From positions 67,584 to 131,583 of the forward strand of contig NZ_GL892008.1 of assembly GCF_000213575.1 (NCBI RefSeq): DNA of 64,000 nucleotides. The letters run 5' to 3'. Of this stretch, positions 33,168-52,141 are shown piece after piece; the first letter of the stretch is position 1; each line of letters starts with the position of its first letter. This DNA is from Dysgonomonas mossii DSM 22836. Lineage in GTDB: Bacteria > Bacteroidota > Bacteroidia > Bacteroidales > Dysgonomonadaceae. The position numbers and the translations under genes are program-made. The notes under the pieces are model-generated. The model was not told where the DNA came from. It saw only the letters and a list, made by a program, of their open reading frames with translations, and made no database searches.

Positions 33168-36100
33168 CTACACATCATACATTTCCCTATCTCTATATTC
33201 CTTAGGCGTACAGCCATACTTTTGAGCAAACTGCCTGAAGAAGGTGGCTCTGTTGGAGAATCCCGATTTATAGATTATCTCATCGATTGTCATTTTGGTA
33301 TTTAGCAATAAGTTTCGGGCTATGTACAAACGGCTCTCCCTTATCATATCTGCCGGACTATCGCTTTCTACTTCGCTCAGCCTACGATACAAGTGACGTG
33401 GGCTCATATTCAGTTCTGCGGCAATAAACTGAGCCGAGAGTTTGCTATTCATTATATTCTTTTCGATGATATTGTAGATATCCTGAATAAACTTTGTATT
33501 CTCCTTATGAGTCATCTTACCTTCCGATAGGTCAAATGCACTTAACGGTGAACTGAAATAGTCCTTCAGCGTCTCTTTGCGCGAAATAAGATGCTTTACA
33601 GATGTTCGCAAATAATCTGCATTAAAAGGCTTGGCAAGGTACATCTCTGCGCCCGACGATAATCCCTCTATTTGTTCCTCGATGGTATGTTTTGCCGAAA
33701 CCAATATCATCGGAATGTGGGCGGTCTTTTTATCCGATTTTATTTCCTTCGTAAGAGAGATTCCATCTCTGCCGGGCATCATAACATCACAAATAATAAT
33801 ATTGGGATGTATCTGCGTCAGCAACTCATCTACAAGCAATGGCTTATCTATAGGAATTACATTATACTCATCGGCAAATATCTCGCTGATAAACCACAAG
33901 ATTTCCACATCATCGTCGATAATAAAGATTGTTGGCTTCAACTTATCAAATGCATATTTCGGAAGCTCCATCATCGGTTCATAATCTTTTCTGATAGTGA
34001 TTTCGGGTAAAGCCTGATTCTTATCAATCAATATATCGGAAACTTCCTTTTGTGGTAGTTTCACAATAAAATCGGTACGCTCATCGAGTATGCTATTTAC
34101 CTCAATCGTGCCATCCAGCAGCTTTACCATACTATAAGAGATGGCCAACCCCAAACCATTGCGGGAGAACTCTCTCTTGCCTTCACGATTCTCAAAGTCG
34201 TCGAGGATACTATATCTGTCAAAAATCCTTGTTATATTTTCGGCTTTAATCCCTTTCCCTGTATTGGATATAATCATCAGCAGCTCATCGTTCTCCTGAT
34301 ATACTTCAACCTGTATAAACCCATTGGTAGCCGTATATTTGAATGCATTGGATACCAAATTGGACAAGATTGTATATATAAATCCCCGATCTGAATTCCA
34401 AACCAAAGAGTCTTCAATGTCCTTACTGAATTGTATGTTTTTCGATTCGGCCAAGTCGTTGAAAGAGTCGCTTATATCATGCGCTATATCTGTGATCGAG
34501 AGCGTTTCTATCTGAGGAGACTTATTACCGGTTTCGATCCGCCTAAACTCGATAAGCTCCTGAATCAAGTCATTCAGGCGTTCGGCATTCCGTTGTATAA
34601 GCTGTGTATATTTCCTCACAAAACTATCGGAACCCGTATGCGACAAGATACGGTTACAAGGCCCATATATTAACGTCAGCGGAGTACAAAATTCATGGGC
34701 GATATTGGTAAAGAAACGCAGCTTAGACTCGTGTACTTCCTCCTGATGACGTTGTTTTATTTTCATCATCGCCTTATATTTTCTCTTCTTGTCTTTTATG
34801 ATAGCTGCTCGTATAAGCAAATATATAACAGATATCATCATTGTTGCATACAAAACATACGCCAACGGGGATAGATACCACGGAGGTGTTATCTTTATTG
34901 TTATCGAATATACGGGGCTTTCCTTGCCGGTAAGACGGTTCATGTACTTTATAAACAATGTGTATTCTCCGGGCGATAAACTTGTAAACGAAATATTATT
35001 AGACGTTCCATTATCAATCCACTGTTTACTCAGGTCATCCAGTTTGTAATAATACGTGTAGTTATTCCCATTTACATAATCGAGTGCAGTAAAAGATATA
35101 GAGAAAAAGTTCTGATTGTAATTAAGCTCAAGCGTCTCATTTTCTCCATTCGATTGTAAAAAGTCGAATATGTTTTTCTCCTGACCGAAAATCATCAGAT
35201 TGTCAAACTGAATGCGAGGAAAATACTCAGGCTGAGCCATACCCGTCTCCGAGATAGCCACAAAGCCATTGATACCGCCAAAGAATAAAATATCGGATTC
35301 TTCATCCTTGAAATAAGCCCCATCGCTATACTCTATAATCTGCAAGCCATTAAGATTTGAATATGTTTGAAAATTATCTTGTTCTATATTAAATTTGATA
35401 ATTCCTCTATTGGTACTCAGCCAAAGATTATTTCTCTCGTCGGCCAATATACCATGAATCGTATTATTAGGGAAACCGTTCCTTTCGTTAAATATCTTGT
35501 CGCTTCTACCCGAAACGTGCTTAACCAAACCAAAACTGGTACCAAACCAAAACGCATTGTTCGAGTCCTTAATAATGGAGAATATGTCATTTAGCGTTTG
35601 ATTTATACCCTTATCGGGCACAAGCGTATCTAGTTTGTGTTGATTTGTATTCAAGCTATATGCGCCATATCCACGGTTTCCGAACCATAAAATAGAATCG
35701 TTTTCCTGATAGATTGTAAAAAAATAATTCTGAGAGTCCCTCCCGTCCCTTATCGTAACACGGCTTGCTTTCGTAAATACAGGAGCATTCTGTGTTCCTG
35801 CCACTGACACTTTTACAATTCCTGTACCCACTGTCGCCAGCCATAGCGTAGAGTCGTTAAGTTCACAGATAGAGTGTATGTATTTTACAGGTTCTCCGTT
35901 GGCTATCAGGGGTACTCGCTTTATCGACCTGTCGCTGTACGAATAGTAACTTAGTCCTTCTTCGCAACCAATCCACAGTATGTTTTTCTTACTCTTGGCA
36001 AAGGCATATACTGAATTATCTGTCAGGGCAGAATTCCCTGTATTACTATACTCGAGTGAGAATTTAGAAGGAGCCTGATTGAAATCATAATTCTTTATTT

Positions 36101-37214
36101 TCACAATCCCATCCCCCTTTGTACCTATCCACAATGTTTTTTCTTTATCTAAAAACAAAGCTCTCACCGGTTTTTCTATATTCGCCGTAAATGTATTGAA
36201 CACCGCAGACCTGATCGAGTACATATCATTCGAATACATATACACCCCTTGTCCATCGGTACCTATCCAAACTAAGTCCTGATAGCGGTCGTTTATCAAA
36301 CAGAAAATACCCGATTTGATACCTATATCTTCAGGCTGGTAATTATCCAGCTTATCGGATACATATTTCAATCTCAACAACCCATTGGTCTTGAATCCGA
36401 TAAAATAATCGTTGTGATGTTTTATTACCGAAGATATCTCGCCATTCTTCTGTATAATCTCTTTCAGATTCCTGACATAGTATTTTTTCTTATCGGCGAA
36501 ATGATATTCATACAAGGTGTAGGTATTGTCTATAAAGTACACGACATCCGAAACGTCTCTTTCGTAGAAGCAATACAGGAGATTTTCATTATGATAAAAC
36601 AGCTTTTCTTTTTCCAGCTTTATATCTCCTTCCCTACTCTCTTTTATCATGTATGCCGGATTAGACTGATCTTTTGTAAACACCTGAAGCTTGTTATCGG
36701 AAGTGATCACAAAATTGAGAATATCATCATATTTCAATCCTTTTAATATTATTTTCTCAAAGGTTTTGGCCTCCTTTTTATAATAATAGATACAGTCATC
36801 CTCTTTTATAATAAAGATATGGTTGTTCTTATCTTTTTGTATCAGATAGCGCCCTTTGAACTGATTAAAAGAATCAATCTTTTTGGTGCGTTTATCCAAC
36901 CTGTTAAGCCCATAGTTTGTGTACACCCAAAGGATACCATCCTCCGTTTCCAATACATTTTCGATAAGATTACCCGACAAGTTGTTCTTCTCATCCGTTG
37001 GCTTGTATACCCGAATGCTAAGACCGTTAAACATATTGAGTCCATCGCAAGAGCCAAACCACAAGAAGCCGTCTTTATCCTGACAAATAGAAAGTATCGC
37101 ACTGTTTGACAATCCATCATGGTTGGATATCTGGCGTAGGTTATATGCGTTTATATTCTGACACAATATAAGACCGATCAGAAAAAATGAAGCGTTTAAT
37201 ACGATTTTTTTCAT
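33168..37214 (-). CDS. Hybrid two-component system (HTCS) sensor/regulator of the PUL
   Basis: 1348-residue single-protein sensor and transcription factor. Order: signal peptide (1-23); two seven-bladed Reg_prop propellers (about 25-690, repeats like DKDGFLWFGSCDGLNMF and LWIGTKGDGIVKI); Y_Y_Y domain (about 700-780); one membrane helix (about 790-812); HisKA with His840 in AHEFCTPLTL; HATPase_c (GLGLAISYSMVKLLDG); receiver domain with Asp1143 in CDVMMPGRDG; and a C-terminal AraC-type HTH (about 1240-1345). The periplasmic part binds an oligosaccharide, then phosphotransfer activates the adjacent susC operon. The H-box has Phe-Cys where Leu-Arg is usual. Divergent from susC with a 373-base regulatory gap; a -7-like TATCTTTG lies at 37259-37252. 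Confidence 0.95.
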   Translation of the reverse strand: MKKIVLNASFFLIGLILCQNINAYNLRQISNHDGLSNSAILSICQDKDGFLWFGSCDGLNMFNGLSIRVYKPTDEKNNLSGNLIENVLETEDGILWVYTNYGLNRLDKRTKKIDSFNQFKGRYLIQKDKNNHIFIIKEDDCIYYYKKEAKTFEKIILKGLKYDDILNFVITSDNKLQVFTKDQSNPAYMIKESREGDIKLEKEKLFYHNENLLYCFYERDVSDVVYFIDNTYTLYEYHFADKKKYYVRNLKEIIQKNGEISSVIKHHNDYFIGFKTNGLLRLKYVSDKLDNYQPEDIGIKSGIFCLINDRYQDLVWIGTDGQGVYMYSNDMYSIRSAVFNTFTANIEKPVRALFLDKEKTLWIGTKGDGIVKIKNYDFNQAPSKFSLEYSNTGNSALTDNSVYAFAKSKKNILWIGCEEGLSYYSYSDRSIKRVPLIANGEPVKYIHSICELNDSTLWLATVGTGIVKVSVAGTQNAPVFTKASRVTIRDGRDSQNYFFTIYQENDSILWFGNRGYGAYSLNTNQHKLDTLVPDKGINQTLNDIFSIIKDSNNAFWFGTSFGLVKHVSGRSDKIFNERNGFPNNTIHGILADERNNLWLSTNRGIIKFNIEQDNFQTYSNLNGLQIIEYSDGAYFKDEESDILFFGGINGFVAISETGMAQPEYFPRIQFDNLMIFGQEKNIFDFLQSNGENETLELNYNQNFFSISFTALDYVNGNNYTYYYKLDDLSKQWIDNGTSNNISFTSLSPGEYTLFIKYMNRLTGKESPVYSITIKITPPWYLSPLAYVLYATMMISVIYLLIRAAIIKDKKRKYKAMMKIKQRHQEEVHESKLRFFTNIAHEFCTPLTLIYGPCNRILSHTGSDSFVRKYTQLIQRNAERLNDLIQELIEFRRIETGNKSPQIETLSITDIAHDISDSFNDLAESKNIQFSKDIEDSLVWNSDRGFIYTILSNLVSNAFKYTATNGFIQVEVYQENDELLMIISNTGKGIKAENITRIFDRYSILDDFENREGKREFSRNGLGLAISYSMVKLLDGTIEVNSILDERTDFIVKLPQKEVSDILIDKNQALPEITIRKDYEPMMELPKYAFDKLKPTIFIIDDDVEILWFISEIFADEYNVIPIDKPLLVDELLTQIHPNIIICDVMMPGRDGISLTKEIKSDKKTAHIPMILVSAKHTIEEQIEGLSSGAEMYLAKPFNADYLRTSVKHLISRKETLKDYFSSPLSAFDLSEGKMTHKENTKFIQDIYNIIEKNIMNSKLSAQFIAAELNMSPRHLYRRLSEVESDSPADMIRESRLYIARNLLLNTKMTIDEIIYKSGFSNRATFFRQFAQKYGCTPKEYRDREMYDV

Positions 37215-37355
37215 GGATGTATTTTGTCCTAATTCTGATATAAGATTATGACAAAGATAAATATCTTACAGATAGTAAACGAGAAACAAATCCGCATTAA
37301 CAGAAGCCACATATATAAATTTGAGACAATGTAGTATAGATTTAAGACATGGCTC

Positions 37356-37371
37356 CAGAATTAATATTCTG
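37356..37371 (+). promoter_or_regulatory. Palindrome upstream of the PUL promoter, candidate regulator site
   Basis: CAGAAT-TAAT-ATTCTG, perfect 6-bp arms, ending four bases before the TTGC element of the susC promoter. The location suits an HTCS activator site, although AraC-type domains more often bind direct repeats. Confidence 0.3.
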
Positions 37372-37374
37372 CAA

Positions 37375-37406
37375 TTGCTGCAGGTTTTAAGAAGAAGATA
37401 TATTTG
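37375..37406 (+). promoter_or_regulatory. Candidate PUL susC promoter
   Basis: TTGC (37375-37378) then 20 bp then TATATTTG (37399-37406), an exact -7 element. Transcription would start near 37413. Confidence 0.5.
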
Positions 37407-37587
37407 CTTTCGGAAAAGATGACTAATACCACTAACCTCTAAAACCTGTAAAAATGAAAAATATAACCTAAAGAGTGATCAACCTAATCCGAATCTAATT
37501 TAATCAAAATGCTCAGAATGTCTATTCTAAATTTAGACCTAAAGCGAATTAATCAAAAACAATCTTTTATTTAAATCTAACTATGGT

Positions 37588-40500
37588 ATGATTAAGAGAA
37601 AGTACAAAAAAAACTTTGTCAGTTTAGCCTTGTCCCTGTTATTCATCGGGACACCATGCATCTTAAATGCCCAGACTGGCAATATCAATGAGCATCAACA
37701 ATCACCTTCTGCAAAAATCACAGTAAAAGGAACTGTGAAAGATGAAACAGGAGAGCCTCTTGTTGGTGTTAGTGTAGTAATAAAAAGGACAACAAATGGA
37801 ACAATGACCGACCTGGACGGTAATTTTTCTATTTCGTGTAACAAAAATGATGTATTACAAATATCCTATGTCGGATTTTTGACACAAGATATTACAGTAG
37901 GAAACAACTCCAACTTTCAGATAAAACTGAAGGAAGACCAAAAGGTTCTGGATGAAGTTATTGTGATCGGTTACGGTACTACTACCCGCAAAAGCGCAGT
38001 GGGTGCCGTTGATCAGGTAAAGGCAAAAACGATAGAAGAACGTCCGGTGGCCAATGTTACTCAAGCCTTACAAGGAGCTTCACCTAGTTTGACAATCCAA
38101 CAACGCAGCATGGACCCGAATGACAACAACATGAATATCAACATTCGAGGGCTATCTACCATGAATAACAATTCTCCTTTGATCGTTATCGATGGATTAG
38201 TAACCGACAACTCCAGTTTGAACAAACTAAGCCCCGGCGATATTGATAATGTTTCGGTACTGAAAGATGCGGGAACGGCTGCCATCTATGGGTCACGTTC
38301 TGCAAATGGTGTTATATTGGTTACAACCAAGAGTGGGAAGAAAAATCAACGCCCTACCGTTCGTCTCGGAATGCAGCTTGGTACACAAGACCCTACCATT
38401 CTGTACAGACCCGTAGAAGGATACCAAAATGCGATATTGAAGAACCTGTCATTGACAAATGTAGGACAAAGTGCAATGTATTCGCCCGCAGAAGTACGTG
38501 ACTTATACGATCACCGAAGCGAAGAGTACTGGAACTTTGACAAGATTATACAATCGGCAATGCAACAGTCGTACAACATGAGCGTTTCGGGTGGTAACGA
38601 GAATACAACTTACCTATTCTCCGGAGCTTACTTTGATCAGAAGAGTAACTTTGTTGGACCTAACTACGGAAAACAACGTTACAATCTGCGTTCAAATCTT
38701 TCGACAGAAGTAGGACGATTCAAACTTTCTTCAATCTTATCATATACCCGCGACGACGGAAAGAAATCAGTTGATGGAAATGCGATTATCAACTCGTCTC
38801 GTATACCTTCGTACTACTGGACTAAAATGCAAGCCGACAATGGCAAATACCTTGTAAACAGCTTGCTTACAGACCAGAACCCATTGGCAGGATTAAAAGA
38901 ATCGGGATACGAGAAAGGAAATACCGACTACATTAATGCAAACATTAATCTTGAAGTAAAAATCATCGACGGATTGAAGTTGCGTGGAGTTGTAGGCGCT
39001 GATATATACGCTTTTCATCGTTTCATAAGAAGAAAAGAGGTGGATTTGTATAACAACGAGAACAATACAACACCTGATATGAAAATGAATGCCAAAAGAA
39101 ATACAGAAGATTACAACGAGAATAAACGCTTGATGAACTATCAGCTTTTGGCGGATTATCAAAAGACATTCAACGATTCTCACAATCTATCCCTATTATT
39201 CGGTGCAACCAACGAGTCGTATACATTCAAAAGCAATGAAGTAAAATTCATTAATACAGACCCTATCTTAGGCGTTCCGACAGAAACTCCTGAATCAGGA
39301 AAGTCTTCGCTTGAAGGCAGAAGAAAAGAAAGTATTACTTCTATACTCGGACGTGCTTCTTACAATTATTTGGAGAGATATTACGCTGAATTTAGCTTCC
39401 GTGAAGACGGTTCTTCAAAGTTTGCGAAAGCAAATCGTTGGGGCTTCTTCCCTTCTTTATCTTTGGGATGGAGAATATCCGACGAATCATTCATGGGCTT
39501 CTATAAAGACAAACTGGGTGATCTTAAAATTCGTGGATCGTATGGTATCTTAGGAAACCAAAATATAGATCCGTATCAAACCCTTGTTACCTACAGTTTA
39601 TACTCAAACACGTACGCATTTGACAATGACGTTGTAGGTGGAGCAGGATATAAATTTGGTAATGAGAACCTGAAATGGGAAAAATCAAAAACATTCAACA
39701 TCGGAGCAGACTTCTCATTCCTTAGAGGGGCTCTATCGGGAACATTCGATTATTTCCACAAAACAACATCAGATATCCTTTTAGCACCACAAGTACCTAC
39801 TGTATTTGGAACATCTCTTAGCTCCGAAAACATCGGAGAAATGAAAAATCACGGTTGGGAAATTACACTAAACTATCATCTGAAAACAGGAGAGTTTTCC
39901 CATGATTTTTCGGGAAATATAGGAGATTCTCAAAATAAAGTCACAAAACTTGTAGGAGGTAGGGAAATTTCGAAAGCTGACGAATACTTCATCATGAAAG
40001 AAGTAGGGCTACCATTCCGTTCTTATTACGGATATAAAATCGACAGCTACTTTAAAACAATGGAAGAAATCCAAACATCAGCCTTACCGGCAGGTATTTC
40101 ATCTTCAGACCTTCGCCCGGGCGATGTAAAATATGTAGACCGTAACAACGACGGGGTGATCGACGAAAAAGACCGTTTCGTCTTAGGAAATGGATTCCCT
40201 CGTTACACATTCGGATTCACTTACAACCTAGAATGGAAAGGCTTTGACTTTAACTTCTTTATTCAAGGTGTTGGAAAACGTGATATGATGGTACGTGGCG
40301 AGTTGGTAGAACCATTCCATTCCAATTATTCGTATGCTATCTACAAACATCAGCTAGACTTTTGGTCTCCAACAAATACCGATGCCACTTACCCTCGTTT
40401 GGCAGGAATAGGATCGGTTTCCAATTCTAACAACTATGGTATGGGGTCGGAAATCAACCGATTTGACGGAAAATATCTAAGACTGAAAAATATACAACTA

Positions 40501-40713
40501 GGATACACCATCCCTAAAAGCCTGACAAATAAACTGATGTTGCAAAGAGTACGTGCATACGTAAATGCTCAGAATCTGTTTACATTAAGTAAAAACTCTT
40601 GGATCGATCCCGAATCTACCGAATTTGATTCAAACATGGGAGGAAGTGCCAACAGTGCACGTAACTATCCTACCCTCAAGTATTTTGGTTTTGGATTAGA
40701 CATTGAATTCTAA
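37588..40713 (+). CDS. SusC-family TonB-dependent glycan transporter of the PUL
   Basis: 1041-residue outer-membrane importer for oligosaccharides released at the cell surface. Signal peptide (to about residue 29, ILNAQ), carboxypeptidase-D-like domain (about 45-115, VKGTVKDETGEPLVGVSVVIK), DEVIVIGYGTTTRKS, plug domain (about 125-240; IRGLSTMNNNSPLIVIDG, LKDAGTAAIYGSRSANGVILV) and barrel to the C-terminal FGFGLDIEF. First gene of the PUL operon and directly followed by its susD partner (19-base gap). Expression is expected to depend on the divergent HTCS. Confidence 0.96.
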   Translation: MIKRKYKKNFVSLALSLLFIGTPCILNAQTGNINEHQQSPSAKITVKGTVKDETGEPLVGVSVVIKRTTNGTMTDLDGNFSISCNKNDVLQISYVGFLTQDITVGNNSNFQIKLKEDQKVLDEVIVIGYGTTTRKSAVGAVDQVKAKTIEERPVANVTQALQGASPSLTIQQRSMDPNDNNMNINIRGLSTMNNNSPLIVIDGLVTDNSSLNKLSPGDIDNVSVLKDAGTAAIYGSRSANGVILVTTKSGKKNQRPTVRLGMQLGTQDPTILYRPVEGYQNAILKNLSLTNVGQSAMYSPAEVRDLYDHRSEEYWNFDKIIQSAMQQSYNMSVSGGNENTTYLFSGAYFDQKSNFVGPNYGKQRYNLRSNLSTEVGRFKLSSILSYTRDDGKKSVDGNAIINSSRIPSYYWTKMQADNGKYLVNSLLTDQNPLAGLKESGYEKGNTDYINANINLEVKIIDGLKLRGVVGADIYAFHRFIRRKEVDLYNNENNTTPDMKMNAKRNTEDYNENKRLMNYQLLADYQKTFNDSHNLSLLFGATNESYTFKSNEVKFINTDPILGVPTETPESGKSSLEGRRKESITSILGRASYNYLERYYAEFSFREDGSSKFAKANRWGFFPSLSLGWRISDESFMGFYKDKLGDLKIRGSYGILGNQNIDPYQTLVTYSLYSNTYAFDNDVVGGAGYKFGNENLKWEKSKTFNIGADFSFLRGALSGTFDYFHKTTSDILLAPQVPTVFGTSLSSENIGEMKNHGWEITLNYHLKTGEFSHDFSGNIGDSQNKVTKLVGGREISKADEYFIMKEVGLPFRSYYGYKIDSYFKTMEEIQTSALPAGISSSDLRPGDVKYVDRNNDGVIDEKDRFVLGNGFPRYTFGFTYNLEWKGFDFNFFIQGVGKRDMMVRGELVEPFHSNYSYAIYKHQLDFWSPTNTDATYPRLAGIGSVSNSNNYGMGSEINRFDGKYLRLKNIQLGYTIPKSLTNKLMLQRVRAYVNAQNLFTLSKNSWIDPESTEFDSNMGGSANSARNYPTLKYFGFGLDIEF

Positions 40714-40732
40714 CAAAAGAAACGATACAAAA

Positions 40733-42361: not shown

Positions 42362-42400
42362 ATAACCTAAAGATTAATTAAATAGAAAAAACATACTATT

Positions 42401-43528: not shown

Positions 43529-43554
43529 TAAATAAAATCTGATATTAATCGGGA

Positions 43555-43588
43555 AGGTTGACCCGAAAGAAAACCGTAGGGTCAATCT
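43555..43588 (+). other. Intercistronic hairpin between susE-like and GH76 genes
   Basis: AGGTTGACCC (43555-43564) pairs with GGGTCAATCT (43579-43588): 10 bp with one G-U pair and a 14-base loop. No T-run follows. It may stabilise the upstream part of the PUL messenger or mark a processing point. Confidence 0.55.
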
Positions 43589-43605
43589 CCTTAGATATAA
43601 AGAAT

Positions 43606-44766
43606 ATGAAACTTATGAAAAATATATATTTCGGATTTATAGCATTTGTTTTGCTAGCCCTATCATCTTGCAGCGATCCCAAGGATGAGTATTCGTACGG
43701 AACTTTGATAGAATACGATTGGAATGCCGCAGCCGATAGTGCATCTAATGCTTTGATAAATAAATTCTGGAACGAAACAGGCAACTATTTCAATTACGGA
43801 AACGACGACAAGGAACTAACATTCCACTATTGGCCCAATGCTCATGCAATGGATGTAGTGATAGATGCTTATCTGCGCACAAACGACAGTAAATATAGTG
43901 CTTACTTCGACAAATGGTTTGCAGGCGTTAAGATAAAAAACGGAAATACTTATGAGAATGCCTATGTCGACGATATGGAGTGGAACGCACTGACTATGAT
44001 CCGCCTGTATAATATCACAAAAGATCAAAAATACTTAGATGCTGCTCAGCAGTTGTGGGGCTGGATCAAAGATGCCTGGTCTGAAGATGTTGGCGGTGGT
44101 ATCAGATGGTGCACCGGATCGTGGGTAACATTCACAAAGAATGCCTGCTCAAATGCTCCCGCAGCTATTATCGGAGCACGTCTGTATCAAATAACTCAGA
44201 ACGAAGAAGACCTCGAATGGGCGAAGAAAATATACGACTGGCAAAAACAAACGCTGGTAGTATCTTCGACAGGTGAGGTGAAAGACAATATCATTGTCGA
44301 ATCGGGTGAAGTAAAAGGCTCGGCTCTTACATACAACGAAGGTACTTACGTAGGAGCGGGAGTAGAATTATATAATATTACCAAAGATATCGTATATTTG
44401 AATGATGCAAAAAGAGCAGCAAATTATACCATCTCTACGCTTATAAACTCAAGCAGCAATGTATTGAGAGACGAAGGAACCGGAGACAATGGTCTGTTTA
44501 AAGGAATATTCATGCGCTACTTCCTCGAGCTTATCAAAGTGAACGACTTGGATGAAGCATACCGTCATAAATTTGTCACTTTCTTAAACAACAATGCCTA
44601 TGTACTTTGGACTACCGGTGTATACAAAAAAGGAGAATATGAAGACAACCTTCTGTTTGGTTCTTCGTGGGATTCTTCTCCGGTAAGCTTTACCCAACTT
44701 ACATCACAGGCTAGTGGTTGTATGCTGATAGAGGCAAAAGCTGCATACGAGAATTTGAAAAAGTAA
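43606..44766 (+). CDS. GH76 family endo-alpha-1,6-mannanase (first copy)
   Basis: 386-residue lipoprotein (Cys22, LSSC) with an (alpha/alpha)6-barrel GH76 domain. GH76 enzymes cleave alpha-1,6-linked mannan backbones with retention. The catalytic Asp pair is visible as YVDDMEWNAL (Asp122-Asp123), and GGGIRWCTGSW, NACSNAPAAIIGARLY and TYNEGTYVGAGVELY are typical blocks. The start is ATG 43606, not the TTG-initiated extension, because it opens the lipoprotein signal. Probably surface-exposed and acting first on the polymer. Followed by a second GH76 gene after six bases; the two copies are clearly diverged. Confidence 0.92.
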   Translation: MKLMKNIYFGFIAFVLLALSSCSDPKDEYSYGTLIEYDWNAAADSASNALINKFWNETGNYFNYGNDDKELTFHYWPNAHAMDVVIDAYLRTNDSKYSAYFDKWFAGVKIKNGNTYENAYVDDMEWNALTMIRLYNITKDQKYLDAAQQLWGWIKDAWSEDVGGGIRWCTGSWVTFTKNACSNAPAAIIGARLYQITQNEEDLEWAKKIYDWQKQTLVVSSTGEVKDNIIVESGEVKGSALTYNEGTYVGAGVELYNITKDIVYLNDAKRAANYTISTLINSSSNVLRDEGTGDNGLFKGIFMRYFLELIKVNDLDEAYRHKFVTFLNNNAYVLWTTGVYKKGEYEDNLLFGSSWDSSPVSFTQLTSQASGCMLIEAKAAYENLKK

Positions 44767-44772
44767 AAGATA

Positions 44773-45960
44773 ATGAAACTTACGTACATTTTTTTATTTG
44801 CAATTAGTGTTGCCACCATAGGGTGTAGCCCAAAAGATAAAGGCAATACGAGTTCTAACCTACAGAGAGCCCAGCTAACGCTGGACTCTCTGTATCAAAA
44901 TTATTCGGCACCCGATACCCGGTTGCTGCGTGAAAACTATCCCTTCGATGACAAGTATACGGCTACGTATCTGGCATCGCAAGAGCAAGCGAATATCCCA
45001 AACCAATATTCGTACCTATGGCCTTACTCAGGAACATTCTCTGCTGTAAACGCCTTGTTTGAAACCACCAAGGATAAGAAATATCAGGAAATCCTTGATT
45101 CGAAAGTGCTCCCCGGATTGGAAGAGTATTTCGATCAGAAGCGGAATCCGTCGGGGTATGCGTCATACATAAACACCGCACCTCAGTCCGACCGGTTTTA
45201 TGACGACAATGTATGGTTGGGTATCGACTTTACAGATACTTACACGCTAACCAAAGAAGACAAATATCTGCAAAAGTCCAAAATGATATGGGAATTCGTA
45301 GCCAGTGGTATCGATGACAATCTCGGCGGCGGAATCTATTGGTGCGAACAAAAAAGAGAGTCAAAAAACACATGTTCCAATGCACCCGGAGCAGTTTTTG
45401 CGCTCAAACTATTTGAAGCAACCCAAGACAGCACTTATTTTAAACAAGGAAAAAGCCTGTACGAGTGGACAAAAAAACACCTGCAAGACCCTTCCGACTA
45501 CTTGTATTTTGACAACATAAGGCTGGACGGAAAAATAGGTGAGGCTAAATTTCCATACAATAGCGGGCAAATGCTACAATCTGCTGCTCTGTTGTATAAG
45601 CTCACAAAAGACGAAGCTTATCTTACCGATGCCCAAAATATTGCAAAATCTGCATATAATTATTTCTTTACAGATTTTACAACATCTGACGGACAACAAT
45701 TCAAACTGTTGAAGAAAAGTGATGTGTGGTTTATTGCTGTTATGCTGAGGGGATTTGTTGAATTATATCATTTGGATAATGACAAAACATATATAGATGC
45801 TTTCCAAAAAAATATGGACTATGCATGGAACAACATGCGTGAAGGCAACGGACTGTTCAACACAGACTGGAGCGGAAAGCAAAAAGATGAAAAGAAGTGG
45901 TTGCTTACACAAGCCGCAATGGTAGAAATGTATGGCAAGCTTGCGTCTATCAACAAATGA
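44773..45960 (+). CDS. GH76 family endo-alpha-1,6-mannanase (second copy)
   Basis: 395-residue lipoprotein (Cys18, TIGC). GH76 blocks: RFYDDNVWLGIDF with the catalytic Asp144-Asp145, DNLGGGIYWCEQK, NTCSNAPGAVFALKLFEAT, FPYNSGQMLQSAALLYKLT. Sequence identity with the neighbouring GH76 is low outside these motifs, so it probably differs in chain-length or branch tolerance. One of the pair may act on the intact polymer and the other on imported or partly debranched oligomers. The lipobox alone does not say which membrane face it is on. Confidence 0.92.
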   Translation: MKLTYIFLFAISVATIGCSPKDKGNTSSNLQRAQLTLDSLYQNYSAPDTRLLRENYPFDDKYTATYLASQEQANIPNQYSYLWPYSGTFSAVNALFETTKDKKYQEILDSKVLPGLEEYFDQKRNPSGYASYINTAPQSDRFYDDNVWLGIDFTDTYTLTKEDKYLQKSKMIWEFVASGIDDNLGGGIYWCEQKRESKNTCSNAPGAVFALKLFEATQDSTYFKQGKSLYEWTKKHLQDPSDYLYFDNIRLDGKIGEAKFPYNSGQMLQSAALLYKLTKDEAYLTDAQNIAKSAYNYFFTDFTTSDGQQFKLLKKSDVWFIAVMLRGFVELYHLDNDKTYIDAFQKNMDYAWNNMREGNGLFNTDWSGKQKDEKKWLLTQAAMVEMYGKLASINK

Positions 45961-45983
45961 AAAAAAATCAACATAAATAAGGT

Positions 45984-47462
45984 ATGAAAAGAAAGAAAAA
46001 CATTGGATTATGCGCCGTAGCGGCTGCAACATTACTAATGGGAGGAAAAGCAGCGGCTCATGACATGACTATCCGAAAGGATAATACGGTGGTAAGCTAT
46101 AACGTTCCTACCGACTTTAAAAGCAACCGCCCACCCGTTGATCAAAGATTATTCAAATCGAAGGCTGTAGAAAGTGAGATAGTACGGATTAAGAAAATGA
46201 TCAAAAATCCGAAACTGGCATGGATGTTCGAAAACTGTTTTCCAAACACGCTGGACACCACTGTCCGCTATCGCAAGACCAACGGTAAAGACGATACTGT
46301 AGTCTACACCGGAGATATACACGCCATGTGGCTTCGCGACTCAGGTGCTCAGGTGTGGCCTTATGTGCAATTGGCAAACAGTGATCCCGAACTGAAGGCA
46401 ATGCTTGCCGGAGTTATCCGCCGACAATTTAAATGTATCATTATCGACCCATACGCCAATGCTTTTCTTGATCCGCACGACCCGAATCCCGATCACCAAT
46501 GGATGAGCGACATGACGGACATGAAGCTGGAGTTACACGAGCGCAAATGGGAGATAGACTCGCTTTGCTACCCAATTCGTCTGGCATACCATTACTGGAA
46601 AACAACAGGAGATGCAAGCATTTTTGATGAAGAATGGCTACAAGCGATCGAACTGGTATTACAAACGTTCCACGAACAACAACGTAAGAATGGCAATGGC
46701 CCGTATAAATTCCAACGCAAAACAGAGCGTCAACTGGATACAATGAACAACGACGGATGGGGCAACCCTGTCAATCCCGTAGGACTTATTGCATCGGCCT
46801 TCCGCCCGTCAGACGATGCCACAACATTTCAGTTTTTAGTTCCGTCTAACTTTTTTGCTGTTAGTTCGTTAAGAAAAGCAGCCGAAATATTGGCAACAGT
46901 AAACAAGAAGCCTGAGTTAGCAGAGAAATGTAAAAATTTGGCACAGGAAGTTGAGACAGCCTTAAAAAAATATGCTATCTTTAACCATCCTAAATACGGT
47001 CAGATCTATGCTTTCGAAGTAGACGGATTTGGAAACCAGTATTTTATGGATGATGCCAATGTGCCCAGTTTATTGGCAATGCCCTATTTAGGAGATATGG
47101 ATGCTAATGACCCTATCTATCAGAACACACGAAATTATGTGTGGAGTAAAGATAATCCATATTTCTTCAAAGGAACAGCAGGGGAAGGTATTGGTGGTCC
47201 CCATATCGGATATGATATGATATGGCCTATGAGTATCATGATGAAAGCATTCACTAGCCGTGACGAAAAAGAAATTCAGACATGTATAAAAATGCTTATG
47301 GATACCGATGCCGGAACAGGATTTATGCACGAATCGTTCAATAAAGACAACCCTGAGAAGTTTACCCGCGCATGGTTTGCATGGCAAAACACACTTTTTG
47401 GCGAATTGATCTTAAAGCAGGTAAACGAAGGTAGAATTGATATGTTAAACGCAATAAAATAA
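45984..47462 (+). CDS. GH125 family exo-alpha-1,6-mannosidase
   Basis: 492-residue exported enzyme with an ordinary signal peptide (to about residue 26, GKAAAH), hence periplasmic. GH125 enzymes remove terminal alpha-1,6-mannose with inversion. Characteristic segments are GDIHAMWLRDSGAQVWPYV, IIDPYANAFLDPHDPN, WEIDSLCYPIRLAYHYWKTTGD, ANVPSLLAMPYLG, GTAGEGIGGPHIGYDMIWPMSI, and MHESFNKDNPEKFTRAWFAWQNTLFGELI. It completes backbone breakdown begun by GH76 enzymes. Starts 23 bases after the second GH76 gene and eight bases before the GH78 gene. Confidence 0.95.
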   Translation: MKRKKNIGLCAVAAATLLMGGKAAAHDMTIRKDNTVVSYNVPTDFKSNRPPVDQRLFKSKAVESEIVRIKKMIKNPKLAWMFENCFPNTLDTTVRYRKTNGKDDTVVYTGDIHAMWLRDSGAQVWPYVQLANSDPELKAMLAGVIRRQFKCIIIDPYANAFLDPHDPNPDHQWMSDMTDMKLELHERKWEIDSLCYPIRLAYHYWKTTGDASIFDEEWLQAIELVLQTFHEQQRKNGNGPYKFQRKTERQLDTMNNDGWGNPVNPVGLIASAFRPSDDATTFQFLVPSNFFAVSSLRKAAEILATVNKKPELAEKCKNLAQEVETALKKYAIFNHPKYGQIYAFEVDGFGNQYFMDDANVPSLLAMPYLGDMDANDPIYQNTRNYVWSKDNPYFFKGTAGEGIGGPHIGYDMIWPMSIMMKAFTSRDEKEIQTCIKMLMDTDAGTGFMHESFNKDNPEKFTRAWFAWQNTLFGELILKQVNEGRIDMLNAIK

Positions 47463-47470
47463 AACCTTTA

Positions 47471-50119
47471 ATGAAAAAGAATCTAAAGCTCCTAATTGCA
47501 GTCTCCGTTATTTTAGCCTTTTTAGCAAGTGCTTGTGGCAGTGTTTCAAAAAACACTAAAATCGTAAAAGCTCAATGCGAGTATTTAGATTCTCCTATAG
47601 GTATCGATGCCGAACATCCGCGTTTCACATGGGTGTTCGGTAGTGATACCGAAAATTTCAGGCAAGAAGCTTACCAGATACATATAGCCAGCAGCGAAGA
47701 ACTACTTGCTTCGGGCAAAGCGGATATATGGACTTCCAACAAAATAGAAAGCACAACACCCCGTGCCATATACAACGGAGGCACAAAACTCACTTCACAC
47801 ACTCGTTACTATTGGACTGTAACAGTATGGGACAAGAAAGGAAAAAACCACACATCACCTGTCAGCTATTTCGAAATGGCTAAAATGTCGAAAGCTGATT
47901 GGCAGGCAAAATGGATCACAGATTCGCACGACAAAGAGTTTGAACCTGCACCATTATTCAGAAAAGAATTTAAGACGACAAAGAAATTAATTTCAGCCCG
48001 TGTCTATGTCAGCGGTACAGGATATTACGAGATGTTTATAAACGGAAAAAGAGTAGGTGAAAACTTTCTTGATCCGGGTTACACACATTTCGACAAACGT
48101 ATATTATATGTTACCCACGATGTAACATCACTTATCACCGAAGGAGACAACGCCATTGCGGCAGTTCTCGGAAATGGTTTTTACAATTGCCAGAGCAAAG
48201 CCGTATGGGACTTCGAAAGAGCCCGCTGGCGCGAACGCCCTAGGCTGTTGAGCGAACTAAGGCTTGTATACGATGACGGCTCTACCGACATTATATCCAC
48301 AGACGAAACGTGGAAAACCAACACAGGACCTTACACATACAACAATATATACAGTGGCGACAGATACGATGCCCGCCTCGAAGAAACAGGGTGGAACTCT
48401 GCCGGATTTGACGACTCGAAGTGGAACAAAGTACAACTGTCAAAAGAACCTGCCCCGATACTGGCAGCTCAGCAAATGCCGGGAATCCGTGCTGTAAAAG
48501 AAATCAAGCCAAAATCGGTAAAATCATTCGGAAATAAGATATACCTCTTCGACTTGGGAGAAAATATTGCAGGGGTTTGCCGTTTCTCGGTAAAAGGAGA
48601 AGCCGGTACGACATTCACACTACGCCACGGAGAACTCCTAAAAGCAGACGGACGACTCGAGCAAGGCAACATCAATGTTTATTATCGTCCTGAGAAAAAA
48701 GGAGAAGTATTTCAAGAAGATGTTTTTATATTGAAAGGAACAGGAAAAGAAGAAGAATTTACACCTCAGTTCAGCTATCATGGTTTCCAGTATATAGAAG
48801 TGGAGAGTGATCGCCCTGTAACACTTACAGTGGATAACCTGACAGGATTGTTTCTGCACACAGATATACCACAAGTGGGTAATTTTAGCAGTTCAAACAA
48901 CCTGTTGAACAAGATATGGGCTGCAACAAACCAAAGTTATCAAGGTAACTTACACAGTATTCCTACCGATTGTCCTCAGCGTGAGAAGAACGGATGGACG
49001 GCAGATGCACATGTTGCTATCGACTTGGCATTACTCAACTTTAATGGAATCACCTTATACGAAAAATGGATGACCGACTTCATCGACAACCAACGTGAAG
49101 ACGGTGTGATTGCCGGTATTATTCCATCTTCGGGATGGGGATTCGGCGACTGGCCGGGACCTGTTTGGGATGCTGCGATGTTTATCATTCCCAATGCGCT
49201 GTACGACTACTATGGCGAGACCCGAAGCATAGAACACCTCTACCCTACTATGGTCAAATATCTGGATTATCTGAAAACAAAAGAAGTAGACGGAGGATAC
49301 CTGAACTTTGGATTGGGAGACTGGGTGTTTTATAAAGCTCAAACACCGAATGAGTATACATCGACACTCTACTATTATCACGACTATGTATTGATGGCAC
49401 GCTTTGCCAAACTCTTAGGAAAAAATGCCACTCCATATCAACAAAAAGCAGAGCAGCTTAAAAAACTGATAAACAACAAGTTCTTCAATGCCGAAACAGG
49501 TATTTATGCCAATGGTACTCAAACAGCTCAGGCGGTAGCTCTGTATATGGGAATAGTTCCCGAAGGAAAAGAACAGCTCGTTGCCGACAATTTGCACAAA
49601 ACCGTTTCAGGAAATAATTACTTCCTCGACTTTGGACTATTGGGCAGCAAAACCGTTCCTGCTATGCTTACCAAATACGGATATGTAGAAGACGCTTACA
49701 AAATGGCTACCAAGACCGAAGCTCCATCGTGGGGCTACTGGGTAGAAACACAGGGATACAGCACCCTTGCCGAAACATGGACACTTAGCCCTGAGTTTCG
49801 CGATGCATCTATCAACCATGTATTTATGGGAGATATCAGTGCATGGATGTACAACACGTTGGCGGGAATCAATCTCGATAGAGACCAACCCGGATTTCAG
49901 AACGTAATCATCAGACCTCATTTTGTGAAAGACTTGGAATGGGTTAAGGGCGAATATAATTCTGTGAGAGGTTTGATAAAATCGGAGTGGGAGAGAGAGG
50001 GAGATAAGATAAATCTTTCGGTAACCATTCCTGCCGGATCTACCGCAACGATATATGCAGACAAAGAATATACTGTAGGTTCAGGCGTTCACCAATATAT
50101 AATAAAAGAAAATAAATAA
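47471..50119 (+). CDS. GH78 family alpha-L-rhamnosidase
   Basis: 882-residue lipoprotein (Cys22, ASAC). Order: Bac_rhamnosid_N-like Ig domain (about 30-140, CEYLDSPIGIDAEHPRFTWVF), two beta-sandwich domains (to about 425, including GTGYYEMFINGKRVGENFLDPGYT), an (alpha/alpha)6 catalytic barrel (about 455-790) and a C-terminal beta domain. The catalytic signature is DCPQREKNGWTADAH starting at Asp500, with Glu505 as the likely general acid, and PGPVWDAAMF and ETQGYSTLAETW further on. Inverting removal of terminal alpha-L-rhamnose is the family reaction. Its presence in an alpha-mannan PUL is the most informative clue to the substrate. Confidence 0.93.
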   Translation: MKKNLKLLIAVSVILAFLASACGSVSKNTKIVKAQCEYLDSPIGIDAEHPRFTWVFGSDTENFRQEAYQIHIASSEELLASGKADIWTSNKIESTTPRAIYNGGTKLTSHTRYYWTVTVWDKKGKNHTSPVSYFEMAKMSKADWQAKWITDSHDKEFEPAPLFRKEFKTTKKLISARVYVSGTGYYEMFINGKRVGENFLDPGYTHFDKRILYVTHDVTSLITEGDNAIAAVLGNGFYNCQSKAVWDFERARWRERPRLLSELRLVYDDGSTDIISTDETWKTNTGPYTYNNIYSGDRYDARLEETGWNSAGFDDSKWNKVQLSKEPAPILAAQQMPGIRAVKEIKPKSVKSFGNKIYLFDLGENIAGVCRFSVKGEAGTTFTLRHGELLKADGRLEQGNINVYYRPEKKGEVFQEDVFILKGTGKEEEFTPQFSYHGFQYIEVESDRPVTLTVDNLTGLFLHTDIPQVGNFSSSNNLLNKIWAATNQSYQGNLHSIPTDCPQREKNGWTADAHVAIDLALLNFNGITLYEKWMTDFIDNQREDGVIAGIIPSSGWGFGDWPGPVWDAAMFIIPNALYDYYGETRSIEHLYPTMVKYLDYLKTKEVDGGYLNFGLGDWVFYKAQTPNEYTSTLYYYHDYVLMARFAKLLGKNATPYQQKAEQLKKLINNKFFNAETGIYANGTQTAQAVALYMGIVPEGKEQLVADNLHKTVSGNNYFLDFGLLGSKTVPAMLTKYGYVEDAYKMATKTEAPSWGYWVETQGYSTLAETWTLSPEFRDASINHVFMGDISAWMYNTLAGINLDRDQPGFQNVIIRPHFVKDLEWVKGEYNSVRGLIKSEWEREGDKINLSVTIPAGSTATIYADKEYTVGSGVHQYIIKENK

Positions 50120-50197
50120 GATATAAGCAGGAGATAAATGCCCGTTCGAATTCCTGTTGGGATAATAAAACAAACTAAACATTAATCTATAATAGAC

Positions 50198-52141
50198 ATG
50201 AAACGCAACTTGTTATTATTACTATTTCTCAGTATTACATTCGTCCTAAGTGCCCAGAAAAAGGCTGAATTACAATCGCCTAGCGGAGAAATAAAAGTAT
50301 CCCTTAGTATCTCAGATAAGATATATTACACAATATCTTATAGCAATGATGTACTATTAGAAAAGAATCATTTGAGCCTGAACTTGGGAAGTGAGACGCT
50401 CGGACTGAATCCCAAACTATCGGGACAAAAAGCAAACAAAGTAAACGAGGTTCTTACTCCTGTTGTTCCTTTAAAATACTCATCTGTAAAAAATGAGTAC
50501 AATTCACTCTTGCTCACTTTCAATGGAGATTATTCTGTCGAATTCAGAGCCTTTGATGATGGTATTGCCTACCGTTTTATAACCAATAAAAAAGGAGACG
50601 TAGAAGTTTTAGGAGAAGATTTTACTATCAATTTCCCTGCAAATTATTTACTTCATTTACAGCAGCCCGGTGGGTTTAAAACAGCCTACGAAGAACCGTA
50701 TACACACGTTGAGAGCAATGAGTGGAAAGCAACAGACCGAATGTCTGTATTGCCGGTATTGATAGATACAAAGAAAAAATACAAAATACTGATATCCGAA
50801 TCAGACCTGTCGGATTATCCTTGCATGTTCCTTAAAGGGAATGGAGCAAACGGAGTACAATCTACATTTCCAAAAGCTCCACTCGAATTTGGAGAAGATG
50901 GAGACCGTAGCTTGAAGATTGTGAAGGAAGCGGATTATATAGCTAAAACAACAGGAAAAAGAAATTTTCCGTGGCGCTACTTCGTCATTACAAAAGACGA
51001 CAAGCAGCTTATAGAAAACACAATGACATACAGGCTAGCTACCAAAAGCCAACTGCAAGACGTATCGTGGATCAAGCCGGGACAAGTCAGTTGGGAATGG
51101 TGGAACGAAGCATCACCTTATGGCCCGGATGTGAATTTCGTAGCCGGATTCAATCTCGATACATATAAATATTACATCGATTTTGCATCCAAATACGGTA
51201 TCGAGTATATTATTATGGACGAAGGTTGGGCTAAAAGCACACGCGACCCTTACACTCCAAATCCGAAAGTAGATGTACACGAACTTATCCGCTACGGAAA
51301 AGAAAAGAATGTAGGCATCATACTATGGCTAACGTGGTTAGTGGTAGAAAACAATCCCGATATATTCAAAACATTCAGCGAATGGGGTGTTAAGGGTGTT
51401 AAAATCGACTTTATGGATAGAAGCGATCAATGGATGGTGAACTACTACGAACGCATAGCCAAAGAAGCCGCAAAATACAATATTCTGGTTGATTATCATG
51501 GTTCGTTCAAGCCTGCCGGAATCGAATACAAGTATCCGAATATCCTTTCGTACGAAGGAGTAAGAGGCATGGAGCAAATGGAAGGTTGTACCCCTGAAAA
51601 CAGTGTCTATTTTCCCTTCATGCGCAATGCTGTAGGTCCTATGGATTACACACCGGGGGCAATGATCAGCATGCAACCCGAAAGATACTGCGGTAATCGC
51701 CCTAACTCGGCAAGCATAGGAACCAGAGCTTACCAGTTGGCACTGTTCGTCATTTTCGAAAGCGGACTTCAAATGTTGGCAGACAATCCTACTCTGTATT
51801 ACAGAAATGAAGATTGTACCAAATTTATCACCGATGTGCCCGTTACATGGGACGAAACCCGTGCACTGCAAGCCAAAGCGGGAGAATATGCGGTCGTGGC
51901 AAAGCGCAAAGGCAATAAGTGGTATATAGGCGGTATGACAAATAATACAGAAAGACAACTTGAGATAAGCCTTGATTTCCTCAATGCCGGAACATCATAC
52001 AAGATGACTTCGTTCGAAGACGGAATCAATGCAGGCCGTCAGGCTATGGACTATTGCAGAAAAGAATCACACGTAAAATCGGGTGATAAGATACAAATAA
52101 AAATGGCTAGAAACGGAGGATTTGCCGCCGTAATAGAATAA
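50198..52141 (+). CDS. GH97 family glycoside hydrolase, probably retaining alpha-galactosidase type
   Basis: 647-residue exported enzyme (signal to about residue 19, VLSAQ). The N-terminal GH97 beta-supersandwich (about 22-290) is followed by a (beta/alpha)8 barrel (about 300-570; YIIMDEGWAKS, KNVGIILWLTWLV, YHGSFKPAGIEYKYPNI) and a C-terminal beta sandwich. GVKIDFMDR places an Asp (Asp404) where retaining GH97 alpha-galactosidases have their nucleophile, and Glu453 (SYEGVRG) fits the acid/base. SusB-like inverting alpha-glucosidases lack this Asp. So alpha-galactosidase is likelier than alpha-glucosidase, though other alpha-glycans are possible. Last gene of the PUL. Confidence 0.9.
   Translation: MKRNLLLLLFLSITFVLSAQKKAELQSPSGEIKVSLSISDKIYYTISYSNDVLLEKNHLSLNLGSETLGLNPKLSGQKANKVNEVLTPVVPLKYSSVKNEYNSLLLTFNGDYSVEFRAFDDGIAYRFITNKKGDVEVLGEDFTINFPANYLLHLQQPGGFKTAYEEPYTHVESNEWKATDRMSVLPVLIDTKKKYKILISESDLSDYPCMFLKGNGANGVQSTFPKAPLEFGEDGDRSLKIVKEADYIAKTTGKRNFPWRYFVITKDDKQLIENTMTYRLATKSQLQDVSWIKPGQVSWEWWNEASPYGPDVNFVAGFNLDTYKYYIDFASKYGIEYIIMDEGWAKSTRDPYTPNPKVDVHELIRYGKEKNVGIILWLTWLVVENNPDIFKTFSEWGVKGVKIDFMDRSDQWMVNYYERIAKEAAKYNILVDYHGSFKPAGIEYKYPNILSYEGVRGMEQMEGCTPENSVYFPFMRNAVGPMDYTPGAMISMQPERYCGNRPNSASIGTRAYQLALFVIFESGLQMLADNPTLYYRNEDCTKFITDVPVTWDETRALQAKAGEYAVVAKRKGNKWYIGGMTNNTERQLEISLDFLNAGTSYKMTSFEDGINAGRQAMDYCRKESHVKSGDKIQIKMARNGGFAAVIE

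What the first reader, a model, noticed from the sequence alone, without database searches (positions are those of the whole stretch)
33168..52141. PUL combining alpha-1,6-mannan and rhamnose enzymes: possible fungal rhamnomannan locus
Two GH76 enzymes and a GH125 define an alpha-1,6-mannan backbone, but there is no GH92 or other alpha-1,2/1,3-mannosidase as in known yeast-mannan PULs. Instead there is a GH78 alpha-L-rhamnosidase and a GH97 with an alpha-galactosidase-type active site. An alpha-1,6-mannan with L-rhamnose side chains is the known rhamnomannan of Sporothrix/Ophiostoma-type fungi, some of which also carry galactose. I know of no characterised PUL for this polymer.
Basis: partly seen in the sequence, partly recalled or inferred. 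Interest (0 to 1): 0.75.

Follow-up and report, generated by a model that had tools for sequence, protein, structure and literature searches.

The report
Mannan-eating locus with a rhamnose cutter
A Dysgonomonas bacterium carries a gene cluster that looks built to import and digest a yeast- or mould-type mannan decorated with rhamnose and probably galactose, a sensible variation on known mannan-eating clusters whose exact food source still has to be shown by experiment.

Summary
The nine-gene locus at 33168-52141 is real: HTCS regulator, SusC, SusD, SusE-type binding protein, GH76, GH76, GH125, GH78, GH97, a tight operon with a divergent regulator. It is a variant of the known alpha-1,6-mannan PUL.

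The rhamnosidase is probably not a chance neighbour. Diverged homologues in two other Dysgonomonas genomes keep SusCDE-GH76-GH76-GH125-GH78, and mannan-linked GH78s form two groups on a GH78 tree. A genome of another family independently combines the mannan core with GH78 and GH97. The GH97 is of the retaining (alpha-galactosidase) type, and its close relatives recur beside alpha-mannosidases.

Three results weaken the 'rhamnomannan PUL' label. The diverged homologues carry GH92 in place of GH97. An 81-82% identical SusC/D pair serves a D. capnocytophagoides locus where neither GH78 nor GH97 was found. The window genome lacks the L-rhamnose operon of its sister species, so rhamnose is probably not eaten by that route.

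Best reading: rhamnose- and probably galactose-capped alpha-1,6-mannan, probably fungal, with the rhamnosidase as decapping enzyme. Sporothrix-type rhamnomannan fits but is not singled out. New variant of a known kind.

The parts
33168..37214 (-). HTCS hybrid two-component regulator (Reg_prop, Y_Y_Y, HisKA, HATPase, Response_reg, AraC-type HTH)
   Evidence: Pfam
37588..40713 (+). SusC-type TonB-dependent importer
   Evidence: NCBIfam TIGR04056 E 9e-269
40703..42361 (+). SusD-type lipoprotein (TTG start listed; an internal ATG at 40733 before the signal peptide is the likelier start)
   Evidence: Pfam PF07980; N-terminus read
42401..43528 (+). SusE-type surface glycan-binding lipoprotein
   Evidence: Pfam PF14292 E 4e-18; lipobox
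43558..44766 (+). GH76a, endo-alpha-1,6-mannanase candidate, lipoprotein with acidic residues after the Cys (surface, inferred); Asp pair D138-D139
   Evidence: best PDB hit 6shd alpha-1,6-mannanase; DD motif; lipobox
44773..45960 (+). GH76b, lipoprotein; Asp pair D144-D145
   Evidence: best PDB hit 4mu9 (deposited as family 73), then GH76 mannosidase 4c1s; DD invariant; lipobox
45984..47462 (+). GH125 exo-alpha-1,6-mannosidase
   Evidence: Pfam E 7.8e-182; close to 3p2c, 3on6 and BT3781 (2p0v)
47471..50119 (+). GH78 alpha-L-rhamnosidase, lipoprotein; candidate acid E505 and base E768
   Evidence: five rhamnosidase Pfam models; alignment to 3w5m and 6i60; residue numbers; roles recalled
50198..52141 (+). 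GH97, retaining type, alpha-galactosidase candidate; nucleophile D404, acid/base E459 (the latter role recalled)

Best explanation
A polysaccharide utilization locus of the alpha-1,6-mannan (MAN-PUL) kind, in a modular variant for mannans whose backbone carries alpha-L-rhamnose and probably alpha-galactose caps. Inferred mode of action: HTCS senses an oligosaccharide; SusD/SusE capture the glycan; surface GH76a cuts the alpha-1,6-mannan; SusC imports fragments; GH78 and GH97 remove rhamnose and galactose caps; GH76b and GH125 reduce the bared chains to mannose. In this species the rhamnose is probably discarded, because the rhamnose operon is missing, so GH78 serves to unblock the mannan. Shown here: gene families, conserved residues at the catalytic positions, operon structure, conserved linkage, purifying selection. 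Inferred: enzyme specificities, cell location, source of the glycan (fungal mannan most likely).
For: Domains and operon. Same PUL in G024 at 96-99% aa identity except SusE (82%); dN/dS of GH78 0.063 and GH97 0.036. HTCS-SusCDE-GH76-GH76-GH125-GH78 order kept in G009 (Dysgonomonas UBA7710) and G023 although SusC/SusD are only 47-57% identical. On a 40-row GH78 tree the 11 rows labelled mannan-linked need 2 changes of label, against a mean of 9.8 in shuffles and 0 of 500 as low. G163, of another family, has on one strand, in coordinate order, GH38-GH76-GH125-GH76-SusE-SusD-SusC, two unassigned ORFs, then esterase-GH78-GH97-GH2. In an order-wide sample, GH97s over 50% identical to the window's lie by alpha-mannosidase genes in 8 of 13 cases against 0 of 7 below 48% (Fisher p 0.010; stricter count 7 of 13, see Tried and rejected). 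L056, a relative's locus at the same chromosomal site, is HTCS-GH76b-GH125-GH97-GH127 without GH78 or SusCDE-GH76a, so these look like modules added to a mannan locus.
Against: SusC/SusD 82/81% identical in D. capnocytophagoides (L077) serve a PUL in which no GH78, GH97 or GH92 was found within the 21 kb held, so the importer is not specific for rhamnosylated mannan. The rhamnose operon is absent from the window genome. GH78s of 62-68% identity outside mannan loci sit in GH78-rich clusters, one of them (P. distasonis, 66%) in a rhamnose operon, so the enzyme may be a general rhamnosidase. By plain density, 7 of 80 GH76b loci holding a GH78-type gene is not clearly more than chance. In the one termite metagenome paper looked at, alpha-rhamnosidase scores 0.00 in all nine columns of its enzyme table (PMC6520439, passage). 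No enzyme was assayed.
Confidence: 0.55

Rival explanations
1. A general alpha-1,6-mannan PUL: the enzymes strip whatever caps occur, and the real main substrate is ordinary fungal or yeast mannan cores or galactomannan (Schizosaccharomyces type), with GH78 an accessory of minor or occasional use.
For: Close importer in a minimal PUL where no GH78/GH97 was found; GH97 within 5 kb of GH76b in 21 of 80 loci but GH78 in 4 of 80; rhamnose operon missing.
Against: GH78 under purifying selection and linked to GH76 in two separate GH78 groups over several genera.
Confidence: 0.28
2. Sporothrix/Ophiostoma-type (or Scedosporium-type) rhamnomannan is the specific substrate, as the first reader proposed (a special case of the best explanation).
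For: Enzyme set matches the published polymer: alpha-1,6-Man backbone with single alpha-L-Rha at O-3 (PMC8489378, passages) or Rha-Rha side chains linked 1-3 to an alpha-1,6-Man core (PMC4196476, passages).
Against: GH97 is unexplained by the neutral polymer; homologues carry GH92; rhamnomannans are also reported from Rhynchosporium (a reference title seen), so the source is not fixed. No induction data.
Confidence: 0.25
3. The GH78 and GH97 act on a plant or bacterial glycan unrelated to mannan and were placed in the operon by chance recombination.
For: GH78s of similar identity occur in GH78-rich clusters and in a rhamnose operon; the locus is mosaic.
Against: Linkage kept across deep divergence and found again independently in G163.
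Confidence: 0.1

Closest known systems
Bacteroides thetaiotaomicron MAN-PUL1/2/3 (yeast alpha-mannan)
   Same: SusC/D, GH76 endo-mannanases and GH125 exo-alpha-1,6-mannosidase; GH125 close to BT3781. MAN-PUL1 is described as tailored to S. pombe mannan (PMC7825182, passages).
   Different: Window locus has no GH92, GH38 or GH99 and has GH78. That MAN-PUL1 might carry a GH97 is recalled only; I could not verify it.
Salegentibacter sp. [quoted passage not shown]
   Same: GH76a's best PDB hit is 6shd, annotated alpha-1,6-mannanase; that this is ShGH76 is recalled; GH125 present.
   Different: That PUL has six GH92, GH43 and GH2 (PMC9213526, passages); the words rhamnose, GH78 and GH97 do not occur in its main text.
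Dysgonomonas capnocytophagoides DSM 22835 locus L077
   Same: HTCS 57%, SusC 82%, SusD 81%, SusE 76%, GH76a 84%, GH76b 66%, GH125 72%.
   Different: No GH78, GH97 or GH92 found in the 21 kb held, which begins inside the HTCS gene.
Dysgonomonas sp. UBA7710 locus L069 (= G009)
   Same: Same order through GH78 (GH78 70%, GH125 about 80%).
   Different: GH92 in place of GH97; SusC/D only 47-57% identical.

Membership tests
alpha-mannan PUL (MAN-PUL kind) | SusC/SusD importer pair | tested here: met
alpha-mannan PUL (MAN-PUL kind) | GH76 with catalytic Asp pair | tested here: met
   two GH76 genes, DD at 138-139 and 144-145
alpha-mannan PUL (MAN-PUL kind) | GH125 exo-alpha-1,6-mannosidase | tested here: met
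alpha-mannan PUL (MAN-PUL kind) | GH92 side-chain alpha-mannosidase, as in yeast-mannan PULs | tested here: not met
   none in the locus; 12 near-full-length matches elsewhere in the genome; present in homologous loci of G009 and G023
alpha-mannan PUL (MAN-PUL kind) | induction by alpha-mannan | not testable with these tools
   needs culture
rhamnomannan-specific PUL (proposed) | alpha-L-rhamnosidase co-conserved with the mannan core | tested here: met
   density count alone inconclusive
rhamnomannan-specific PUL (proposed) | importer or binding proteins particular to rhamnosylated mannan | tested here: inconclusive
   81-82% identical SusC/D in a locus where no GH78 was found speaks against; no binding data
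rhamnomannan-specific PUL (proposed) | L-rhamnose catabolism in the same organism | tested here: not met
   rhamnose operon absent in the window genome; RhaA present in 7 of 7 other genomes tested; other rhamnose routes not tested
GH97 retaining alpha-galactosidase | Asp nucleophile of the retaining subgroup | tested here: met
   D404 aligned to the Asp of 3a24 that is Gly in 5e1q
GH97 retaining alpha-galactosidase | score over the NCBIfam equivalog cut-off NF053844 | tested here: not met
   682 bits, cut-off 800
GH97 retaining alpha-galactosidase | alpha-galactosidase activity | not testable with these tools
   retaining GH97s with other specificity are known (recalled)
GH78 alpha-L-rhamnosidase | five-model GH78 architecture and catalytic Glu pair | tested here: met
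   E505 and E768 line up with Glu residues of 3w5m (alignment; their catalytic roles recalled)

The most novel reading that the evidence does not exclude
There is a modular tribe of alpha-1,6-mannan PULs in Bacteroidales with exchangeable decapping cassettes matched to different decorated fungal mannans. The window is a neutral rhamno/galacto version in which rhamnose is stripped but not eaten. Sister loci carry an acidic version: a candidate new polysaccharide lyase family (seven loci, no Pfam, NCBIfam or PDB sequence match found) plus GH88/105 and often GH67, fitting the Rha-GlcA-Man side chains reported from Sporothrix.
Probability: 0.25. Interest if true: 0.72.

Novelty: new variant of a known kind. 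Interest (0 to 1): 0.5.

Why it matters
Rhamnomannans are reported as immunologically active surface glycans of Sporothrix and Scedosporium (PMC8489378, PMC4196476, passages). I found no bacterial pathway for them in the listings of my searches of the held library. If the reading holds, the locus gives a defined enzyme set to dissect such glycans and shows how mannan PULs adapt by swapping decapping enzymes. It also gives a clean test of whether gut bacteria remove rhamnose only to reach mannan.

Tried and rejected
Density test for GH78 near GH76b: 7 of 80 loci hold a GH78-type gene (4 within 5 kb, all on the same strand). This is not clearly above what GH78-rich Bacteroidales would give (my rough estimate, no call), so I rest the linkage on conserved gene order and the tree instead. 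One of the seven (L108) is a weak 45-bit match. In two of the 80 loci (L112, L122) my ORF calling did not recover the GH76 gene on the + strand, so they count as misses.

GH97 count: my notebook says 9 of 13. Recounted against it is 7 of 13 with a GH76, GH125, GH38 or GH92 gene within 12 kb on the same strand, or 8 of 13 if G163, whose mannan genes lie about 13 kb off on the same strand, is included. For 8 of 13 Fisher p is 0.010; for 7 of 13 it is 0.022 (my own arithmetic, no call). The window's own hit was left out (21 hits, 20 compared). G235 contributes two of the 13. Several contigs are short, so misses may be truncation.

GH78 tree: 39 of the 57 GH78-annotated ORFs plus the window's own. 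Dropped were L039 and L170, duplicates of L069 and L078, and all ORFs at or under 850 bits. Most of the 71 GH78 matches, largely of 43-46% identity, were never annotated and are not in the tree. The mannan-linked label was set by me; L123's GH78 is on the opposite strand, L091/L093 are near copies, and many loci were drawn through GH76b, which favours linked rows. Support for the larger linked group is 90/85, an open fork.

SusE structure model: mean pLDDT 51.7, not used. The lyase-like protein model has mean pLDDT 56.6; its fold matches are polysaccharide lyases at the top, but only one has E under 0.001 and their TM-scores are under 0.25, so only a hint. PL27 (5nok) was considered for it: rank 50, not supported.

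Rhamnose operon: the genes flanking it in G024 were not found in the stretches held around RhaA of G009 and G023, so it probably lies elsewhere there, and loss in the window lineage versus gain in G024 is not decided.

Papers: searches are of the held open library only, and only listings were seen for most hits (15 of 17 listed, 15 of 20). The Nature 2015 yeast-mannan paper is not held.

Full report
OBSERVATION. Pfam and NCBIfam give HTCS, SusC, SusD, SusE, GH76, GH76, GH125, GH78 and GH97. The + strand genes are separated by -11 to 78 bp and the HTCS is divergent with 373 bp between. On the left lie BamA-type and two OmpH genes, on the right an exonuclease and dnaN, so the locus is self-contained. 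The genome (G000, 3.95 Mb, 99.99% complete) belongs to the same genus as G009, whose contig has the same length (115377) as that of Dysgonomonas sp. UBA7710 in L069, hence Dysgonomonas.

ENZYMES. GH76a is nearest among solved structures to 6shd, an alpha-1,6-mannanase, and GH76b to 4mu9. Both keep an Asp pair, which PMC9213526 (legend seen) calls the catalytic pair of GH76. GH125 is very close to 3p2c and BT3781. GH78 matches all five rhamnosidase models and has Glu residues aligned to those of 3w5m that I recall as catalytic acid and base. GH97 aligns over its length to 3a24/5e1q; the Asp that reads Gly in 5e1q is D404 here, so it is of the retaining subgroup. Its score (682) is below NCBIfam's cut-off (800) for retaining alpha-galactosidase, so galactose is probable but not certain. 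GH76a, GH76b, GH78, SusD and SusE have lipobox-like motifs; none was found in GH125 and GH97. Surface versus periplasm is inferred from this.

IS THE RHAMNOSIDASE PART OF IT? (a) G024 has the same locus at the same site, 96-99% aa identical except SusE at 82%, and the PUL genes are under purifying selection; GH78 dN/dS is 0.063, GH97 0.036. (b) G009 and G023 keep the order HTCS-SusC-SusD-SusE-GH76-GH76-GH125-GH78 although SusC/D are only 47-57% identical, and end in GH92 where the window has GH97. (c) Among 80 named loci with a GH76b relative (the best 80 of 255), GH78 lies within 5 kb on the same strand in 4: L069, L091, L093, L094; L091 and L093 are near copies. (d) In an order-wide sample of 393 genomes, of 17 non-own GH78 hits at E 1e-250 two sit 49 and 97 bp from a GH76 gene (G359, G106) and one (G163) in a mannan cluster. 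(e) On a tree of 40 GH78s the 11 rows labelled mannan-linked need only 2 changes of label, with 0 of 500 shuffles as low; starred branches force two, so there are two separate associations. G163 shows, on one strand and in coordinate order, GH38-GH76-GH125-GH76-SusE-SusD-SusC, two unassigned ORFs, then esterase-GH78-GH97-GH2, an independent meeting of GH78 and GH97 with the mannan core. Density alone would not prove the link (see Tried and rejected).

THE GH97. A GH97 lies within 5 kb of GH76b in 21 of 80 loci, 18 on the same strand (one of these, L067, is only 26% identical to the window's GH97). In the order sample, GH97s over 50% identical to the window's are by alpha-mannosidase genes in 8 of 13 cases (7 by the stricter count) and those below 48% in 0 of 7 (p 0.010 for 8 of 13). 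So this GH97 type travels with alpha-mannan loci, mostly without GH78. That fits galactose caps on alpha-mannan.

HOW THE LOCUS WAS BUILT. At the same chromosomal site (BamA 89%, OmpH 95 and 81%, HTCS 74%), the MAG locus L056 has HTCS-GH76b-GH125-GH97-GH127 and no SusCDE-GH76a or GH78. The window's SusC-SusD-SusE-GH76a are nearest to D. capnocytophagoides L077 (76-84%), its HTCS, GH76b, GH125 and GH97 to L056 (74-88%), and its GH78 to G009 (70%) (leaving aside the near-identical G024). The locus is a mosaic of modules. In L077 no GH78, GH97 or GH92 was found in the 21 kb held, so the importer is not tied to rhamnose. The SusD type is uncommon: 19 of 393 genomes of the order sample match at E 1e-60, and only four besides the window's at 46% identity or more.

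RHAMNOSE IS PROBABLY NOT EATEN. The window genome has no RhaA match; 7 of 7 other genomes tested have it. In G024 genes for a rhamnulokinase, L-rhamnose isomerase, RhaT, rhamnulose-1-P aldolase and an AraC-type regulator lie in a 5.9 kb stretch that is missing from the window genome, with 93-94% identical flanks about 115 bp apart on one contig. The only kinase left is a 40% paralogue that the relatives have too. Other routes for rhamnose were not tested. So GH78 most likely removes blocking caps.

SUBSTRATE. Sporothrix rhamnomannan has an alpha-1,6-Man backbone with single Rha units at O-3, and signals assigned to Rha(a1-4)GlcA(a1,2)Man are also reported (PMC8489378, passages); Scedosporium-type polymers carry Rha-Rha side chains on an alpha-1,6-Man core (PMC4196476, passages). 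The enzyme set fits such polymers, but GH97 is not explained by the neutral one. A paper on fungus-farming termites names Dysgonomonas in the core gut community and Bacteroidales as main source of endo-1,6-alpha-mannanases, but its enzyme table gives 0.00 for alpha-rhamnosidase throughout (PMC6520439, passages). I put 0.55 on a rhamnose-bearing, probably also galactose-bearing, alpha-1,6-mannan and 0.25 on Sporothrix-type rhamnomannan specifically; the second is a special case of the first, so the two are not additive.

COMPARISON AND NOVELTY. It works like a MAN-PUL and meets the backbone features but not the GH92 feature. Of the two papers looked into on yeast-mannan PULs (passages only), PMC9213526 has no occurrence of GH78, GH97 or rhamnose in the main text and PMC7825182 none of GH97 or words beginning rhamnos (GH78 not searched there). 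Searches for rhamnomannan with PUL, and for GH76 with GH78, rhamnosidase or rhamnose terms (listings only), showed no described rhamnomannan PUL in the held library. I rate it a new variant of a known kind.

RELATED LEAD. Seven of the 80 loci carry a conserved 637-679 aa protein in the same run as GH88/105, six of them with GH97 and five with GH67. It has no Pfam match in any of 7 members, no NCBIfam match in the 2 tested and no meaningful PDB sequence match. A low-confidence model has a helical N-terminal half and a beta-rich C-terminal half, and 7 of its top 8 fold matches are polysaccharide lyases, with dermatan sulfate epimerase the other. With GH88/105 beside it, a lyase for uronic-acid-bearing mannan is plausible; G034 has a PL8 gene next to its GH76a.

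Noticed in passing
G000:C6:224088-224204 versus L211:10639-16541: The whole L-rhamnose operon of sister genome G024 is cleanly missing in the window's genome (flanks 93-94% identical on one contig), although a GH78 is kept.
   Followed up: yes
window 42401-43528: SusE-type binding protein is only 82% identical to G024's (dS 0.67 against 0.17-0.35 for the other PUL genes), suggesting replacement of just this gene by recombination; the flanking exonuclease also has a raised dS of 0.58, though 99% aa identity.
   Followed up: partly
L157 and L158 (G000:C4:164000-200000): The genome's other full GH78 (only 26% identical to the window's) sits in a run with GH130, GH92, GH92, SusC, SusD and, farther on, GH92 and GH38, so both full GH78s of this genome are in alpha-mannosidase-rich loci.
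   Followed up: partly
L071:7426-9462, L074, L079, L080, L089, L092, L123:13889-15799: Conserved protein without Pfam match, near GH88/105 in alpha-mannan loci; weak model resembles polysaccharide lyases: candidate new lyase family.
   Followed up: partly
L162:5931-8108 (G034): A PL8 lyase gene directly follows HTCS-SusC-SusD-SusE-GH76a homologous to the window's, hinting at acidic mannan.
   Followed up: no
L056:1857-16913: Relative's locus at the same BamA-OmpH site holds HTCS-GH76b-GH125-GH97-GH127 without SusCDE, GH76a or GH78; record titled Prevotella sp., though BamA is 89% identical to the window's, so the label may be wrong.
   Followed up: partly
window 40703 and 43558: The listed TTG starts of SusD and GH76a precede likelier internal ATG starts at the signal peptides (sequence read).
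   Followed up: no
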